Assembly (NCBI GenBank): GCA_030272585.1
Contig: BSYQ01000004.1
Span: 3,844,001-3,908,000 of the forward strand
Length of the DNA: 64,000 nucleotides
Reading direction: 5' to 3'
Source: Bryopsis sp. KO-2023
Taxonomy: Eukaryota > Chlorophyta > Ulvophyceae > Bryopsidales > Bryopsidaceae
A model generated the notes under the pieces. That model searched no databases, was not told where the DNA came from, and was given only the letters and a program-made list of their open reading frames with translations. The position numbers and the translations under genes were made by a program. This document shows positions 21,545 to 29,357 of this stretch, piece by piece. Position 1 is the stretch's first letter, and every line of letters starts with the position of its first letter.

Positions 21545-23939
21545 TTACACAGCCTCCACTGGCTTGGTTCGCCCCATGATCTTCATTTTCTCTTCGGAGG
21601 TCTGGAAACGACCGTGGCCCATCTTGGACGAAGTGTCAATGAATTTCAACTCCACCTCCTCCAGAGCCCTGCGGGACGTCTGTGCCAACAAACTCCTTCG
21701 CAGCGTGATCGGCCTCTTCTTGGTTCCCACAACGGAGCCCTTGAACATGAGGTAATCCTCGGACACCACTCCGTATCGTGGGAAACCGCCCATGGGAGTG
21801 ACATCCTTTTCGGTCAAATCGAAGGCGGTCTTGGCCTTGTGCGAGGGTTGGTTCTTTTTGCCGATCTTGTAGATTTTGTGGTTCATCTCAGTTCGGTGAT
21901 GGAAACCGTGCTGACCCACTCTGGCCACGGTCCAGGACACCCTGGAAGGATGCCACGCTCCGATACAAGCGACCTATCCATTCGTTCACCAGAGGAAGTC
22001 TTGCTTAATTCAACAGTTGGCTTAATTTGCATTCTAATTGAAGATCGGACAACCTTGTCTTTTTCACTTTTACTTTCTGACTGGAGCGAAGGAAAGATCC
22101 TTGAACGGAAATCCATGATGAAAGTTTTATCCTCAGATAGTAATATCAAACAAACAAAAACAATGGTTGTCTGGAGGGAAAAATTTGTTCATTCTGGTGA
22201 GATTCCAAATCAAGGGGCGGGTAATAAAAAAGAACTGCGGCAAATTAAGAACGATACTCGTTCTGCTGAACAGCCATTCCAAAAAAAATATCGCACACTT
22301 CTCTCCTAAAACAGAACATACCACGTCGCTCTAAAAAAGGACGTGAAGAGAAGCCAAAAATAGAACCAGAACTTAAGTATCGAATGTATATGTCTGACGC
22401 GGAAAAAGGATTCATTTTTGGCTATTTCAACTGCATAATAAATTTCTAAATGATGGAAAAAAAAATTGAATTTCAAAGACGCCACAGTGGACATCGTTGT
22501 AACCAAACAAAACAAACATCTTTGAGAAACTATATATGTATATATCTTCAACATGTCAGAAAAAGAAAAAAACCTAAAAGAATTTTAAACCCCTCATAAT
22601 GTATATATATATATATATACCTTTCTGAGACCTCTATGGGTCTTTCTTGGCAATCGAGTGACACCCCATCTGGTGACCACACCCTCAGTTCCGCAACCCT
22701 TTGTGACGGCAATAGTGTCGATCATTTCATTGGGTTGGAAGACGCTATCCACGCTCACACCCTTCTCAAACAATTTGTATGCAAAATCGACCTTGTCTGG
22801 AACGGTTCCGCCATTAACCTGGTCAACATACCCCAACTCAGCTTTCGACCCATTAATTTCAAGAACTTCAAAAAAAAAAGGAGAAAGGATTTGGTTTTTT
22901 GCTGATTTTTGCCCTTCAGGGAATGAAACTTCAGCAATACGCCCACCCACCCCACTCCCCCCAAAAAATAAAAAAAATCCCCATTTTTCCTCCAAGCCGT
23001 ATGCGTAATATTCTTTCTTTCTTTTTTTTGGACTGGTCTCCTATGAAAATCAGGCATCTATCATCAATACCAATGACAATTGGCAACATCCCCACATACA
23101 CATCTCCACTCCTTATTTATTTTGGTTGCGATTGTTTTTTTTTCCTTGTAGAAGACATGTGCTTCTCAGCAGCGACACCCTCACATTTGCTTTTTTTTCA
23201 ACAAGAAGAAAACTAAAAAAAGGATGGGAAAACTGCCAATAAATATCAAATAAAAATACCCATATGTTGTGTCTTTTTCCATTCCAGTTCATTTTTACTT
23301 TTTCGTGTTTCCAACAAATGAAATAAAAACCATCAACAGACCTACAATAACAAAAAAAGAAGAAAAAAAACCTATGTGCAACTGTACCTGAATCTCCATG
23401 CAATGACCCTTCTTTTGGAACCTCTTCAGGGGCGTCTTGGAGATCTGAGTGTGTGCCAAAATCCTGATGGAGACGCACTCATCCTTCATCTTCCTCAAAG
23501 TATCCTCGATCTCGGTGGATCCATCCTGATACTTCTTGGCATAGTTACAGAAAGCCCTCCTCTGGCTGGTGTGCCACCTCTTGTAAAACCTCCTCTTCAT
23601 TTCGTCGGTGAGATGCTGAGCCCACACGGTGTACTTGGACACGGGTCCCTTGGCGGTGGAAACGTATCCGATTGCCGCGACGACGATCATTGGGGGGCAC
23701 TCCACGATCGTCACGGCTTCACAGGTCTCCTTCTTGTGGAGTTTCGAGTTGGGACGATCGACTTCGCGAACGATGTGGGTGGAACCCGCCTTGTAACCCA
23801 TGAACCCGGTCAAGTGGGGTGGTTGCGAGGCGTCGTCCTTGGGAAAGGATTTGATCTTTCCCTTTCCGCGCCTGCATCGCTTCTTGGGCAGGAATCCCAA
23901 CGAACCGCAACGAGGGTGCTCGAATTTTCTGTGCGACAT
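21545..23939 (-). CDS. RPL3: 60S ribosomal protein L3 (uL3)
   Basis: Cytosolic large-subunit protein near the peptidyl-transferase centre. Three exons on the minus strand: 23939-23388 (184 codons), 22818-22621 (66) and 21973-21545 (143 with stop). Both junctions are phase 0, giving 392 residues, the normal size. Family motifs are N-terminal [20 protein letters not shown], then [15 protein letters not shown], the exon-2 segment [23 protein letters not shown] with [12 protein letters not shown]-type ending, and the C-terminal GHGRFQT. The junction restores MEIQ-VNGGTV, as in other uL3 proteins. The conserved tryptophan-loop segment is present (RWG rather than RWH). It is head-to-head with the trypsin-ankyrin gene (start codons 921 bases apart). 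Confidence 0.97.
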
Positions 23940-24860
23940 TTTCGCTCCCTACGTATCCCTCTTCCAACCTCTAAACAGCTGGAGGCCGAGTTGAAAAAAA
24001 ATATATTAGGCGTCAGAAAACCATTCCCCCCCTTCAACCCCAGTGATGAGAAGGGGCTTTGTGTTCAAAATGAACCCCTTTTCGCACGTTCTTGCGTTGA
24101 CATTCAAACCCGAAAACTTCTCGCGTTCTCGGTTTCAAAAAAAGAGAATGAGGGAAGGCACACGACCCAACATACAGGGGACAGAATGAAAACGAACGCG
24201 CTAGCCAATCAGCTCCAGACGCCGGCAACAAAGGAAGACCAGGACCGGGAAAATAGAAACCTCGACGCCCATGCAAGTGCAGGAAATAGAGCTGGACAAT
24301 GAACGTACCCCTTCCTCTGCTCCTCTCTGGCGTTTCCGACGCCTTCTTTCAGCTGCTGCTCTGCCCGTGTGCTGCAATCCGCCGCCTGCCCTGGACTTCG
24401 CTCACGTTTCTGTTTTTGATCGAAAATAATATCGGACGCCGATAATGACTCGCATTATCGATCTTTGGTGAATTTCTGTCCATTTTTTTTTCCATCGTCT
24501 TTCACCCAATCCTCGATCGCGGCCGGCCACACACAACTCGCCGCAACAGTGTGTGTGTGTGTGTGTGTGTGTTTGTGTGTTTCTTCCAGCCCAGTTTGAA
24601 CTTCCTCCCCTGGATGGTTGCAGCCGTCTCGACCAACGTCTTTTTTGGGACTGGCCTGAGTTCAGAACAAACACCACCAAGATTTGTGATGCAGCTGTCA
24701 GCGATTAGGCGCAAGGTCACACTTCCATCAAGAACAATATAACGAAACCGTGGGGTAAGAACATGCAGAACTTTTCAAAGTAGAACTTGAAGAAAGAAAA
24801 ATTTCACCGCCCTCACCACAAGCGGAAAAAGTCTTCCGTGGGCGGTAGAAAACTTCCCCA
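23940..24860. promoter_or_regulatory. divergent upstream region of RPL3 and the trypsin-ankyrin gene
   Basis: A 921-base region between two head-to-head start codons, locally GC-rich at 24200-24400, with a (TG)n run at 24549-24571. It must hold both promoters. I see no ORF worth calling and no clear TATA box. Confidence 0.55.
24549..24571. repeat. (TG)n microsatellite
   Basis: About eleven GT repeats in the divergent upstream region of RPL3 and the protease gene. Confidence 0.85.
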
Positions 24861-27800
24861 ATGAACGTCAGCGGCCTTCTGAAGTGCCTCTTGGCGTTCT
24901 TATTGATCCTGCTGCAGGTCGCGTGCCAGGACCTGGACAAAAATGCTCCCGGCCGAGAAAAGTTTGAGGTGTTCCACTATGGTGAGCTGCAAACACCCCT
25001 TCCTTCCCCCCAAGCAGAAAGAACAAGGCGTCCCCAAATAGGCGTCCGTCAAGGATCTCCGTTTCGTATTGTCATATCGGGAACACGTGCTGCCCCACAA
25101 GTTTCCTTACATAAGGATGCTTGATCGCACGCTGAACTCCTGCACCGACAACGCTTCCGTTCCTCTCGTGGAAACGTGAACGAGTATGTTGTCTCACTTG
25201 CAGGAACTTCCAAGATGAGAAGGAACGTGAAAGTAAACAGGAAACCCGTCCAAGCGCGAATTGCGGTGAGTGTCCCCGCGGGCGCCAGGCGAAGTATGTC
25301 GTCATAGTTCCACACTAAAAATAAAACAGAGGAGTTCAGTCATTGCCAGCTGAAATCAAGGAGCAAACAACAATAGCGCGAAACGCGCGTGGGGTGTTCC
25401 ATGCGATAAACTGTAAATTCTGTTTCCCTCCCTTCATTTTTGCCTTTGATTTTTGCATGTATAGAAATCAATCAAGCACTCACCTCTGTATCAAAATCTA
25501 ATGACTGTTTCTGGTTGGGCATATTCCAGGGTGGATCATCCTCTGCTAAGGGCCGGTTCCCATACATGGTGTCCCTGAGGGGCCCAACGAACGAACACAC
25601 CTGTGGAGGGGCATTGATTGGGAAGTACTGGGTCCTGACAGCAGCACACTGCGTTCACCCAAAAAGGAAAATATCCGCGGGATTGAATGCAGTGGTGGTC
25701 ATTGGGGGATTTAACAATGACGACGATTCTTCCGTCGCCGGAGTTGAGGTGGGAGGGAGGGGATGCTACTGTGAATTATGATCGATTTGTGCAGTTTTCT
25801 GAAACGCTCCTCTGCATGGCGGACTGTGACAGTAATGGGAGTTCCCCCCAAACTGTACCCTGCAGCAAATCTGCAAGTGCATTGCTTAGTCAGTTCCCAC
25901 CAATTTAAAAAAAAAACTACAGAAATGATCGAATCGACACAACATTTGCTCCTGTGCTCCGATGTTCACAGATGATGCGAGTGGCCGAAACATTTATTCA
26001 CAAAGATTTCAACCCTGACGATCTTTTCGGACAAGGTTCTGACATTGCCTTGTTGAAACTGGAGGAACCATCCAGCAAGACTCCTGTGGGACTGCCGGAC
26101 CCCCGATCGGAATTCGGGTTGGGAGATAAATTCCTGATTATTGGGTGGGGCAAGCAGGGGGTAGAGAATCCAGTCAAGGAATTGCAACAGGCTTTCCTTT
26201 CCTTCGTGCCAAGGGATATCTGTGGGGATAAATGGAATGGCGCAATTCACCCAACCCTCATGTGCGCATGGGATCCGAAGGCGGATGCCTGCACAGGTCC
26301 CCATGCGACGACTAATTGCTTTTCCATCGATGCTCTCTCGTGCTTGCAGAAAGAATTTAAAAAAGAAAAATCTGAAGTTAACGGGTCAAAAATTCCTTTT
26401 TCTGATGTGCCGCACAATGTCTTACTTTTCGTTCTGGCTTTGATCGAACAGGAGATTCGGGTGGCCCCCTCCTCATCCCTTTTGCACCAAAAAATGATGT
26501 GAGTCTTGGAGAAGCTAAATTCGACACCATAGTGGGCCTCACATCATTCGGTGAGAATTCCTCTTGCGGAAGATCCACCATCCCTGGTGCCTACACCAAA
26601 CTTTCGAAATTCATCGGCTGGATCGAAGAGACAATGGCGGCACCCGAGGTGAATTGCCCAAACTTCCCACCACCCCCCCCGTCAGAACCTGAGGTGCGCA
26701 TGCATGATTCGCCATTCCTGCAATTATTATCTATAGTTTTTTGGATGGGGTTGATCTTGGTTAGGAAGTAATCCAAGGTCCGTATGCTTTCCGAAAACTC
26801 CACATCCAGTTCAGCAGGCAGCTTGTTTTGAGAAGTTAGTGTTGACTGCAAAGATGAGAATGTGGTGCAGGCACAGCCAGCGGATGAAATCCCTCCAAAG
26901 ACAGTTAAGAAGCAGCCAGACAACTCCCCCACAGAGGTGTGTTATTCGCTCCCGCGAAAGACCTCCTCTTTTTTTCTTCGCCACAGCGCGAAATGACACT
27001 TGTGCACAATATCCCTGGAAAAGATTGGGTGGATACATTAAGGAAAGAACAGAAGGGGGGGATGGGGTTCCCCCATACAATTTTGTGTTGTTTTGTTTTG
27101 TTTTGTTTTGTTTTGTTTTGTTTTGTTTTGTTTTGTTTTGTTTTGTTTTGTTTTGTTTTGTTTTGTTTTGTTTTGCTTTTTTTTTTTTTGGGGGGGGGGG
27201 GGGCACGGAATCAATTATGTTATATCTTTCAGAGTTCAGCTAAGTATACCAACAGAACTTGCGGTGTTGAGACTTGAGGGCTGTCTATGCACTGTACAGA
27301 CCGCCAAAGAACGCGGCCCTGCTTCAGAGGAACCACCTCTTGATGAAGAGGATGGTGCAACCCCTGTGGAAGTTCCAGATGTGCCCAAGGTATCGGTTCA
27401 CTGCACAATTCTTTTTCTTCTTAGAAATATATGAATTTAAATTGGACCCCTTTCCTTGCTTTGTGGAGAATAAAGCCTTCTGAATGAGCGATATACCACT
27501 GGTTGCTGGCTGAGTTTGGGTAGGAGAAAAACCCCACTGAATGCGCGACAAAATGCACTTGCGTGTGTGGGGGTTTGGCCCTGATTTTTCTCATTATTTT
27601 GTGAAATTTCATTTAGGAAGAGGATGTCAGTCCTCCAAAACTTGGGGACAAGGAACAGAAGAAGCTGGATTCGGTAGGCAGGAGATCAACCGGATACAAG
27701 ACAGCACTTAAAAAATGATGGAACATATCCTTGTTATTTTTCTTTTTTTTTTTTTTTTGGGGGGGGGGGGTGGTTTTAGGTCTCCCCAGGGTAGCTGTTT

Positions 27801-29357
27801 TCTGATCAGTTCTTGTTGATATTTGAATACTGCTTAGCTTGTCTGTATTTTTGCAGGACCTGTTGGTTGCAGCAAAGATAAACGACCTGGCAGAAGTGAA
27901 GGTAGCATCGACACAATGCCATCAAAAAGAAACAGTCTAAAGCTGGCCATAATTATTGAAAACCCCAAAATTGGATGAACGCACACCTCGTGATTCCGTC
28001 CGAGACCGAGGAAAACAACCCTACGATTAACTTTGAAAAACTGTCAATGGCTACAGGCGGTTATGTTTTGGATTTTCTTCTTTTTCATTCGAAGGGAATA
28101 TCAACCACTGCTTGTTTTCGTTCTTCCGTTTTGAAACTCTTGTAGTGCGCATCATTTTCGGCGAAAATTCAAGTGTTGGTTTTCATCTGAAGGAAAACCG
28201 TTTTGCTTCTATGATCGCTGAGGGTTTTTTTTCCTTGTGAAACAAAGAAATTGCTGAAGAAGGGTGCCGACATCAACGTCAAAATGAACGGCTGGACACC
28301 CCTCCTGGTGGCTGCACATGAGGGTCTGCTTGGATTAGCTGAGGTACAGCTCCAAAAAACTCCACACCAAAGAATCATGCAAGGTTTCGATCCACTCCAT
28401 TACAGCTTCCTCCGCTGCTTAAATCATGATCGATATTCCGACCTCACGGTTGCTTCCTGTTGTTTTGGGTTGGTTTGCAGCTGCTGTTGGATCGTGGAGC
28501 AGATATTGAGGGGGCCACAGATGAAGGCTGGACGCCTGTGATCCGCGCATCCTTCGATGGCCATTCCGACCTCGTCAAAGTAAGCAGCAGCACCAAAGCT
28601 GGAAATCAACACGTTTTTTTTCGAAGTTTTTTGCCATTTAAAAGCTCCCTTCCGGCCCTTTTTTCCCATCAATCGAATCAAGCTGGAAAAACTGCCGTTG
28701 AGTCATAGTGCATGTCTTTTTGGGAGCGGTGTGGAGATACCATTGCTGGGGGTGTATAAGATCCACACATTTGGGCAGCCCATGTCACGAATGCAGAGTG
28801 GTCTTGTCGATATTTGCACTTTACGAGCTTGATTGCTTCTCTGTCTGTCTTGCAGTTTTTTGTGGAGCAGGGAGCAAATGTCGATGCCCAAACAGTGGAA
28901 GGCAACACAGCATTGATGCACGCAGCCTACCGAGGCCGAATCCAAGATGTAGAGGTAATAATCACCTCGATCGTGTTCATTTTCAGCTCAAAATTTAAAA
29001 GGGAAATAAAAGGGAATCGAAAGGGACCCTCTGGGCATATTGATGCATCAAAATCTCGTCGGCTCCATTCTGACTTGCTCGAAGAATTCTGCCATAAAAC
29101 AAAAACGAACAAGCAACAGCACGACAAGCTTTCCCTTTTCAATACGCAGTCCATAACTCAAGTGGAGATTTTCGGTGTGTGTGTGTGTTTTTTTTCCCCT
29201 TTTTTCGACACAGGTGCTCTTGGAGATGGGGGCCAAAAAAGATTTAATAAATGAAAACGGAAGCATTGCTAGCGAAGTCGCTTGCGGAGATCCTGACACC
29301 GACTGCCCCTTATCGACTCGAAAAAAACTGGACAAGCTCTTGTCTAATGAAAACTGA
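24861..29357 (+). CDS. secreted trypsin-like serine protease with C-terminal ankyrin repeats
   Basis: Thirteen exons join in frame to 554 residues: 24861-24981, 25204-25265, 25530-25748, 25972-26296, 26452-26693, 26871-26936, 27300-27389, 27617-27673, 27857-27901, 28248-28343, 28482 or 28481-28579, 28856-28954 and 29214-29357. The N-terminal MNVSGLLKCLLAFLLILLQV is a signal peptide. Propeptide cleavage is predicted at R59|IAGG. The S1 triad is His101 (TAAHC), Asp158 (SDIALLKL) and Ser245 (GDSGGP). Asp239, six residues before Ser245, predicts cleavage after Lys/Arg. Residues about 310-395 are a Pro/Glu-rich linker over three short phase-0 exons. From about 395 come four to five ankyrin units, nearly one per exon (96-99 nt), with GADINV, GADIEG and GANVDA turns. 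S1 peptidases act outside the cytoplasm while ankyrin repeats are mostly cytosolic, so the topology is unusual. Whether all exons form one mRNA is inferred from phase continuity and the absence of an internal stop. Confidence 0.8.
27091..27175. repeat. (TTTTG)n pentanucleotide repeat, about 17 units
   Basis: Uninterrupted TTTTG array in the protease intron 26937-27299, followed by a T-run and G-run to about 27202. Expected to be length-variable. Confidence 0.95.

What the first reader, a model, noticed from the sequence alone, without database searches (positions are those of the whole stretch)
24861..29357. Signal peptide, trypsin domain and ankyrin repeats in one phase-continuous gene
Seen: an intact S1 catalytic triad with activation site R|IAGG, then Pro/Glu linker exons, then ankyrin repeats at almost one repeat per 96-99 nt exon. 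All downstream introns are phase 0 and the 13 exons sum to 1665 nt with a single terminal stop. Known: S1 proteases are secreted, whereas ankyrin repeats are mostly cytosolic. An ER-targeted trypsin with an ankyrin tail would therefore be an extracellular or vacuolar ankyrin scaffold, or a protease with a built-in docking or inhibitory module. I do not know this architecture as a described family.
Basis: partly seen in the sequence, partly recalled or inferred. Interest (0 to 1): 0.8.

Follow-up and report, generated by a model that had tools for sequence, protein, structure and literature searches.

The report
Secreted trypsin-ankyrin protease family
In what looks like a Bryopsis-type green seaweed, this gene joins a signal peptide, a complete trypsin and an ankyrin-repeat tail in one protein; it belongs to a large family of such genes in the same genome, so the odd combination is very probably real, though what the tail does is still unknown.

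Summary
It is not a lone oddity: 18 further genes read in the same 91-Mb genome carry trypsin exons followed on the same strand by ankyrin repeats; 10 of 11 C4 trypsin loci hand-picked from those with no listed ankyrin do so, and 0 of 10 informative loci on other contigs. Paralogs have linker exons between the domains, nine share an ankyrin intron with the window's exon 9, and most have a four-cysteine C-terminal cap. Repeats of trypsin-linked genes hold 0 cysteines in 2,942 residues against 31 in 3,237 for unlinked ankyrins, which fits the secretory pathway. The ankyrin part changes about three times faster than the protease at equal synonymous divergence. Best reading: a secreted zymogen whose fast-evolving tail is a docking module. 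Function is inferred; no transcript was available. PsaB points to Bryopsis or near kin. I found no description in print, but the main Bryopsis genome paper was not held.

The parts
24861..24981 (+). exon 1: start codon and signal peptide (residues 1-22, MNVSGLLKCLLAFLLILLQVAC), start of propeptide
   Evidence: hydrophobic run 3.44 by Kyte-Doolittle; cleavage place judged by eye
25204..25265 (+). exon 2: propeptide and activation site R59|I60-A
25530..25748 (+). exon 3: protease, GG...TAAHC with His57 equivalent (H101, 25647-25649)
25972..26296 (+). exon 4: protease with Asp102 equivalent (D158) and S1-pocket Asp189 equivalent (D239)
26452..26693 (+). exon 5: GDSGGP with Ser195 equivalent (S245), end of protease, start of Pro-rich linker
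26871..26936 (+). exon 6: Pro/Glu linker (phase 0)
   Evidence: not checked against a close relative, least certain
27300..27389 (+). exon 7: acidic Pro/Glu linker (phase 0)
   Evidence: least certain
27617..27673 (+). exon 8: linker (phase 0)
   Evidence: least certain
27857..27901 (+). exon 9: first ankyrin half-repeat, ends ...EVK|gt at the same place and phase as the N-cap exon of nine paralogs (...KVK|gt)
28248..28343 (+). exon 10: ankyrin repeat
28481..28579 (+). exon 11: ankyrin repeat
28856..28954 (+). exon 12: ankyrin repeat
29214..29357 (+). exon 13: last repeat and short C-terminal cap with Cys531 and Cys538, stop codon
29632..29644 (+). two TGTAA motifs after the stop codon, possible poly(A) signals (TGTAA as green-algal signal is recalled); none lies in 26694-27856, but an AATAAA lies at 27469 in intron 7
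   Evidence: weak,

Best explanation
One nuclear gene encodes a secreted S1A protease zymogen with an ankyrin-repeat tail. The chain enters the ER by its signal peptide, folds with the three usual trypsin disulfides, and is switched on by cleavage after Arg59, which frees Ile60. The ankyrin solenoid, held after a flexible Pro/Glu linker and closed by a disulfide-type cap, binds a partner (substrate, surface or inhibitor) outside the cytosol, in the cell wall space or vacuole, and brings the conserved protease to it. The genome has multiplied the unit and varied the tail while keeping the enzyme. Shown: gene order and exon structure shared by paralogs, intact active site, family, fast tail. Inferred: splicing of the window's linker exons, secretion, disulfides in the cap, zymogen activation, docking. 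Confidence that it is one gene: about 0.91; that the product is secretory: about 0.9; that the tail is a docking or recognition module: about 0.6.
For: 13-exon chain exact; Pfam; 18 further genes of the same order in this genome; 10 of 11 C4 loci hand-picked from those with no listed ankyrin downstream; linker and N-cap exons in printed junctions, N-cap found by pattern in 9 of 19 genes, with the donor at the window's exon 9 position in those nine; cap with four Cys in 16 of 18 complete genes, three in L052, two in the window; 0 Cys in 2,942 repeat residues against 31 in 3,237; candidate signal peptides in 5 of 6 linked genes with enough upstream DNA; Ser195 and Asp102 in 19 of 19, His57 in 17 of 17 that cover it; pN/pS trypsin 0.17-0.19, ankyrin part 0.55-0.59 in two groups.
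Against: No transcript or protein evidence. The window's linker exons are not confirmed by relatives. The window's cap is reduced to two Cys, and it lacks the CxxxC N-cap of the large group. A hydrophobic ATG frame lies between the domains in 5 of 19 genes, 0 of 19 on the reverse strand, and an AATAAA at 27469. pN/pS stays below 1 in every class tested, so recognition is not forced; a tail under weak constraint would look alike, and no other ankyrin family served as control for the rate. L044 has an in-frame stop in a trypsin exon, so some copies are probably dead. The nearest kin by tree (L042) shares 44% of the protease, and the tree rejects one clade of ankyrin-linked trypsins (p-AU 0.0002), so the join may have arisen or been lost more than once. 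17 of 19 linked genes lack Asp189, so the window's specificity is not that of the family.
Confidence: 0.6

Rival explanations
1. The ankyrin tail is a built-in brake: it folds back on the protease and blocks the active site until it is cleaved off or bound by a ligand.
For: The tail is C-terminal to the enzyme in all 19 genes, behind a linker where the junction was printed. Self-inhibition would explain why a family of active-looking proteases keeps it.
Against: A brake that fits a conserved enzyme face should be constrained with it; the tail evolves about three times faster in amino acids. Detected repeat hits vary from 4 to 11 per gene, half-repeats included.
Confidence: 0.15
2. The tail is a sorting or anchoring device for the vacuole or wall, and the enzyme is an ordinary digestive protease.
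For: Signal peptide candidates, Pro-rich linker, many tandem copies.
Against: Anchors seldom need variable repeats (general knowledge); a close trypsin relative (L060) shows no ankyrin but a Cys-rich repeat downstream.
Confidence: 0.15
3. Two adjacent genes, a trypsin and an ankyrin protein, that the reader joined.
For: No transcript; a copy without the trypsin block exists (L066); hydrophobic ATG frames between the domains in 5 of 19 genes against 0 of 19 on the reverse strand, that of L052 in frame with the linker; AATAAA at window 27469; TGTAA does not settle the 3' end (9 of 18 genes have one within 400 bases after the stop, 6 of 19 between the domains).
Against: Same order and strand in 19 genes at 0.3-1.2 kb spacing; the protease frame meets a GT at the same codon in 14 of 19 genes; linker and N-cap exons in phase 0 in printed junctions of the large group; T-rich intron ends explain most of the hydrophobic frames.
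Confidence: 0.07
4. The gene is a decaying copy with no product.
For: It lies about 1.3 Mb from the main arrays (capped ends up to 2.60 Mb; the nearest listed capped end is 0.25 Mb away), with a reduced cap; L044 shows that broken copies exist.
Against: No stop, frameshift or lost splice site in 13 exons; catalytic residues and the three trypsin disulfide pairs present.
Confidence: 0.04

Closest known systems
S1A trypsin-like zymogens, some with extra modules (chymotrypsin, coagulation factor XI, plasma kallikrein: among the best PDB matches)
   Same: R|I activation site, triad, GDSGGP, disulfide cysteines; best E 1.4e-30
   Different: Their extra modules are Apple, kringle and the like and mostly lie before the enzyme (recalled); here an ankyrin array lies after it
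Secreted ankyrin-repeat proteins (ANK effectors) of oomycetes, PMC11139960 (abstract and passages seen)
   Same: Signal peptide plus ankyrin repeats, expanded family; one member possibly works in the plant apoplast
   Different: The word trypsin does not occur in the text, so no protease fusion is described there; other lineage
Latrotoxins (PDB 7ptx, 9goa, 7pty; molecule names only)
   Same: Ankyrin proteins that act outside the cell (recalled); the window's repeats match theirs
   Different: No protease domain (recalled); only the ankyrin part was compared
Cytosolic ankyrin proteins such as ankyrin-1 and -2 (best PDB matches)
   Same: Repeat consensus
   Different: No signal peptide, cap or enzyme; cytosolic (recalled)

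Membership tests
S1A trypsin family | His-Asp-Ser triad in TAAHC, DIAL, GDSGGP | tested here: met
S1A trypsin family | Activation site Arg|Ile with Asp194 | tested here: met
   R59|I60-A-G-G and GDSGG; cleavage itself not tested
S1A trypsin family | Three core disulfide pairs (42-58, 168-182, 191-220) | tested here: met
   Cys 86/102, 218/232, 241/281 by place in the sequence
S1A trypsin family | Asp189 for Arg/Lys specificity | tested here: met
   Asp239 in the window and in L042; 17 of 19 linked genes have Gly, Ala, Ser or Thr instead
S1A trypsin family | Proteolytic activity | not testable with these tools
   needs protein
Ankyrin repeat proteins | 33-residue repeats over Pfam cut-off | tested here: met
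   PF00023 77.8 bits against 21.1
Ankyrin repeat proteins | Solenoid fold | not tested
   the spliced protein is not read letter by letter from the DNA, so I did not hand it to the structure tool
Oomycete secreted ANK effectors | Signal peptide with ankyrin repeats and no enzyme between | tested here: not met
   a complete trypsin lies between them
Latrotoxins | Latrotoxin-specific regions beyond the repeats | not tested
   only the ankyrin part was compared with the PDB

The most novel reading that the evidence does not exclude
A coenocytic green seaweed runs a secreted recognition system made of dozens of proteases with variable ankyrin tails, in effect extracellular repeat-based receptors that carry their own enzyme, used against microbes or to seal wounds; the enzyme is dropped in some copies (L066) and the tail replaced by other repeats in others (L060).
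Probability: 0.15. Interest if true: 0.85.

Novelty: new variant of a known kind. Interest (0 to 1): 0.62.

Why it matters
Ankyrin repeats are mostly taken as cytosolic modules; a large family that joins them to a secreted protease, with cysteine-free repeats and a cysteine-rich cap, would show how the solenoid is refitted for use outside the cytosol. If the tail guides the protease, the family is a natural set of guided proteases in which one enzyme is kept and the targeting part varied, in an alga of a kind known for rebuilding itself from spilled cytoplasm.

Tried and rejected
Two-gene reading: tested by paralogs and set aside, not excluded. TGTAA as poly(A) evidence: 9 of 18 genes within 400 bases after the stop (some stretches shorter), 6 of 19 between the domains; too weak to use. 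Co-location from capped hit lists: of 115 trypsin loci 8 had a listed ankyrin downstream within 8 kb, 4 upstream on the same strand, 1 on the other strand; this undercounts, because single-repeat exons fall below Ank_2, so loci were read directly. Cap search: of the 148 matches, 78 reach the cap (query end 103 or more), 70 on C4; 43 of 70 have a trypsin hit upstream on the same strand within 7.5 kb (150 hits plus 5), against 15 downstream and 7 upstream on the other strand; tandem arrays inflate the controls, 27 of 70 had none, and the ends of the window, L039, L040, L023 and L027 fall short of that cut. Four capped ends without a listed trypsin were fetched (three on C4, one on C12): L066 shows no trypsin in 2.6 kb upstream of its first detected repeat, L067 none in 4.4 kb, L068 and L069 had under 0.9 kb upstream and say nothing. 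One-origin test rejected, p-AU 0.0002, long branches in play. A first rate for the second group's ankyrin (0.82) was wrong because L023 was read out of frame; one search replaces it (0.55). Viral contigs: no relative of the trypsin part. Prokaryote genome contigs were not searched with success (one search failed). Papers: no description found in seven searches, listings seen only; the paper asked for (DOI recalled as the Bryopsis genome paper) is not held. 18S rRNA search failed twice. Structure prediction was not run, because the spliced protein is not letter for letter in the DNA and the paralogs came from the genome search and the fetch from genomes, which that tool does not list. Rows dropped before counts: L009, L010, L011, L013, L015 (pieces of the window gene), L012, L014, L019, L021, L022, L025, L037 (second cuts of other loci), an edge fragment on the minus strand of L047, L032 (partial trypsin, C2, no ankyrin hit), and the second gene of L055 for the tail count. 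On review, I lowered the one-gene odds from 0.93 to 0.91 and raised the two-gene rival from 0.06 to 0.07.
Full report
What was checked. The window lies at 3,844,001-3,908,000 of contig C4 in an assembly of 91.09 Mb in 28 contigs. Pfam finds Trypsin at 60-300 (E 8.8e-44) and Ank (E 3.2e-22). The best solved chain by sequence is chymotrypsin (E 1.4e-30), and 545 distinct PDB sequences match the trypsin part at E 0.001 or better. Triad, R59|I60, Asp189 and the six disulfide cysteines are in place.

Organism. C28 is a 91,672-bp contig with an rbcL of 475 aa whose PDB matches are of green type as I know them, beside an atpA (named from recall). A 450-aa piece of its psaB matches PDB 6igz_B best (1028.6 bits, six differences as I read the printed alignment), the next at 940.9 bits. 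6IGZ is from Bryopsis corticulans (passages of PMC9931709). So the source is Bryopsis or near kin. An assembly of Bryopsis sp. KO-2023, GCA_030272585.1, is in print (passages of PMC12509668); whether this is that one was not tested.

A family, not a curiosity. Trypsin gives 198 matches in this genome, 150 of them listed, which fall into 115 loci, 54 on C4. Read directly: six loci, five of them chosen because ankyrin hits lay near; ten, hand-picked from trypsin loci with no listed ankyrin downstream; ten more; and L023 and L027, brought in by their ankyrin hits. With the profiles, 19 genes have trypsin exons followed on the same strand by ankyrin repeats: L023, L027, two in L039, L040, L041, L042, L044, L046-L053, L056, L057 and the window. 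Of the C4 loci picked with no listed ankyrin, 10 of 11 carry it (8 of 8, 2 of 3; the exception, L058, is a trypsin whose active serine is replaced). On other contigs 0 of 10 informative loci do (L043, L054, L055, L059-L065, each with at least 3.2 kb downstream; a second gene in L055 has 106 bases downstream and is not counted). Twelve trypsins read as one open frame (L001-L008, L020, L028, L029, L034), held with 1.5-kb flanks, showed none.

Why it is one gene. In the large C4 group the protease frame reaches a GT right after WIDEKM; a linker exon such as GSQTSSPEISPSNEAESPAENTDDAAE (L048) and an exon GICREDCDKLN...KVK then lead, in phase 0, into the repeats (nine junctions printed, of eight loci). 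A GT at that codon is seen in 14 of 19 genes; L042, L044, L056, L057 and the window have none there. The N-cap exon was found by pattern in 9 of 19 genes, and in those nine its end (KVK, then gt) matches the window's exon 9 (EVK, then gt) in place and phase; the acceptor side was not found by that script and was seen by eye only, in L041 and L056. The C-terminus after the last repeat has a cap, CxC...C(x4)C, with four cysteines in 16 of 18 complete genes, three in L052 and two in the window (L050 runs out of its stretch). A search with one terminal exon found 78 places that reach the cap, 70 on C4, 67 of those between 0.5 and 2.7 Mb; 43 of 70 have a listed trypsin exon upstream within 7.5 kb, against 15 and 7 for the two controls. 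Against: by a loose hydrophobicity rule 5 of 19 genes have a start-like frame between the domains and none on the reverse strand. In the window it is the GTTTT repeat of the intron; in L052 it reads in frame into the linker exon. T-rich intron ends make such frames likely on the coding strand, but a second start is not excluded.

Secretory route. A hydrophobic start was found in 5 of 6 linked genes with enough DNA upstream, not in L044 (a simple rule, no trained predictor, and some loci gave more than one candidate). Repeat hits of 15 bits or more in the 19 linked genes contain 0 Cys in 2,942 residues; 11 unlinked ankyrin loci of the same genome contain 31 in 3,237, and 10 of those 11 have at least one. 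The residue-level p of 2e-9 overstates the case because the genes are relatives, and the cytosolic place of the unlinked set is assumed. L066 is 91-92% identical to L053 on both sides of a missing 1.6-kb trypsin block; it keeps the signal-peptide exon, but whether its frame is whole from there to the repeats was not settled.

Enzyme kept, tail varied. In two groups of close copies (8 and 5 genes) pN/pS is 0.19 and 0.17 for the protease pieces, and 0.59 for the last repeat plus cap in the first group and 0.55 for the whole ankyrin frame in the second, with column-bootstrap ranges that do not overlap and nearly equal synonymous change (0.346 and 0.349; 0.268 and 0.290). In the second group the usual binding-face positions (recalled from designed ankyrins) stand at 0.74 against 0.45 for the other repeat positions. 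Nothing exceeds 1. Ser195 and Asp102 are present in 19 of 19, His57 in 17 of 17 covered. Asp189 is present only in the window and L042; the others have Gly (11), Ala (4), Ser (1) or Thr (1). So most copies are not expected to cut after Arg or Lys, while the window's should.

Descent. On a protease tree of 43 rows the window pairs with L042 (support 93/71, 44% identity), apart from the main C4 group; ankyrin-linked rows need four changes, and holding them as one clade is rejected. Long branches make this unsure. Losses in L060, L061, L063 and L064 or more than one join would both fit.

Reading. I take it as a secreted S1A zymogen with a C-terminal ankyrin docking module. That it is one gene and a family is well supported; secretion is well supported; docking is an inference from a conserved enzyme, a variable tail and large copy number. 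A brake and a sorting device are live rivals. Against the known: S1A proteases with extra modules are common (recalled), secreted ankyrin proteins are known in oomycetes (PMC11139960, abstract and passages) and in latrotoxins (molecule names; their action outside the cell is recalled), but I found the two joined in no listing of seven searches. The library did not hold the paper that I recall as the Bryopsis genome paper and I had no protein database of eukaryotes, so a gap in print is not shown.

Noticed in passing
L054 and L055 (C14), L058 (C4 3.55 Mb), L059 (C5), L065 (C8): Trypsin-like genes in which the active-site motif GDSGGP reads GDDGGP, GDNGGP or GDGGGP; likely inactive pseudoproteases, three of them in two stretches of C14.
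   Followed up: partly
L060 2214-2942: A trypsin close to the trypsin-ankyrin group has no ankyrin hit; downstream lie four 183-nt tandem units that read as a 61-residue Cys-rich repeat with no Pfam family over cut-off.
   Followed up: partly
L062, downstream of the trypsin: Two Cys-rich pieces that resemble PAN/Apple domains (PAN_4 at E 0.005 and 0.002 alone, below cut-off; 1.3e-7 when joined with inexact leading letters); Apple domains also accompany trypsins in factor XI and kallikrein (recalled).
   Followed up: partly
L066 against L053: A copy that lacks a 1.6-kb block with the trypsin exons, 91-92% identical on both sides.
   Followed up: partly
window about 27085-27180: A (GTTTT)n run followed by long T and G runs inside an intron of the gene.
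   Followed up: no
window 23295-23948, - strand: Ribosomal protein L3-like start ([18 protein letters not shown]...), named from recall, divergent upstream neighbour of the gene.
   Followed up: no
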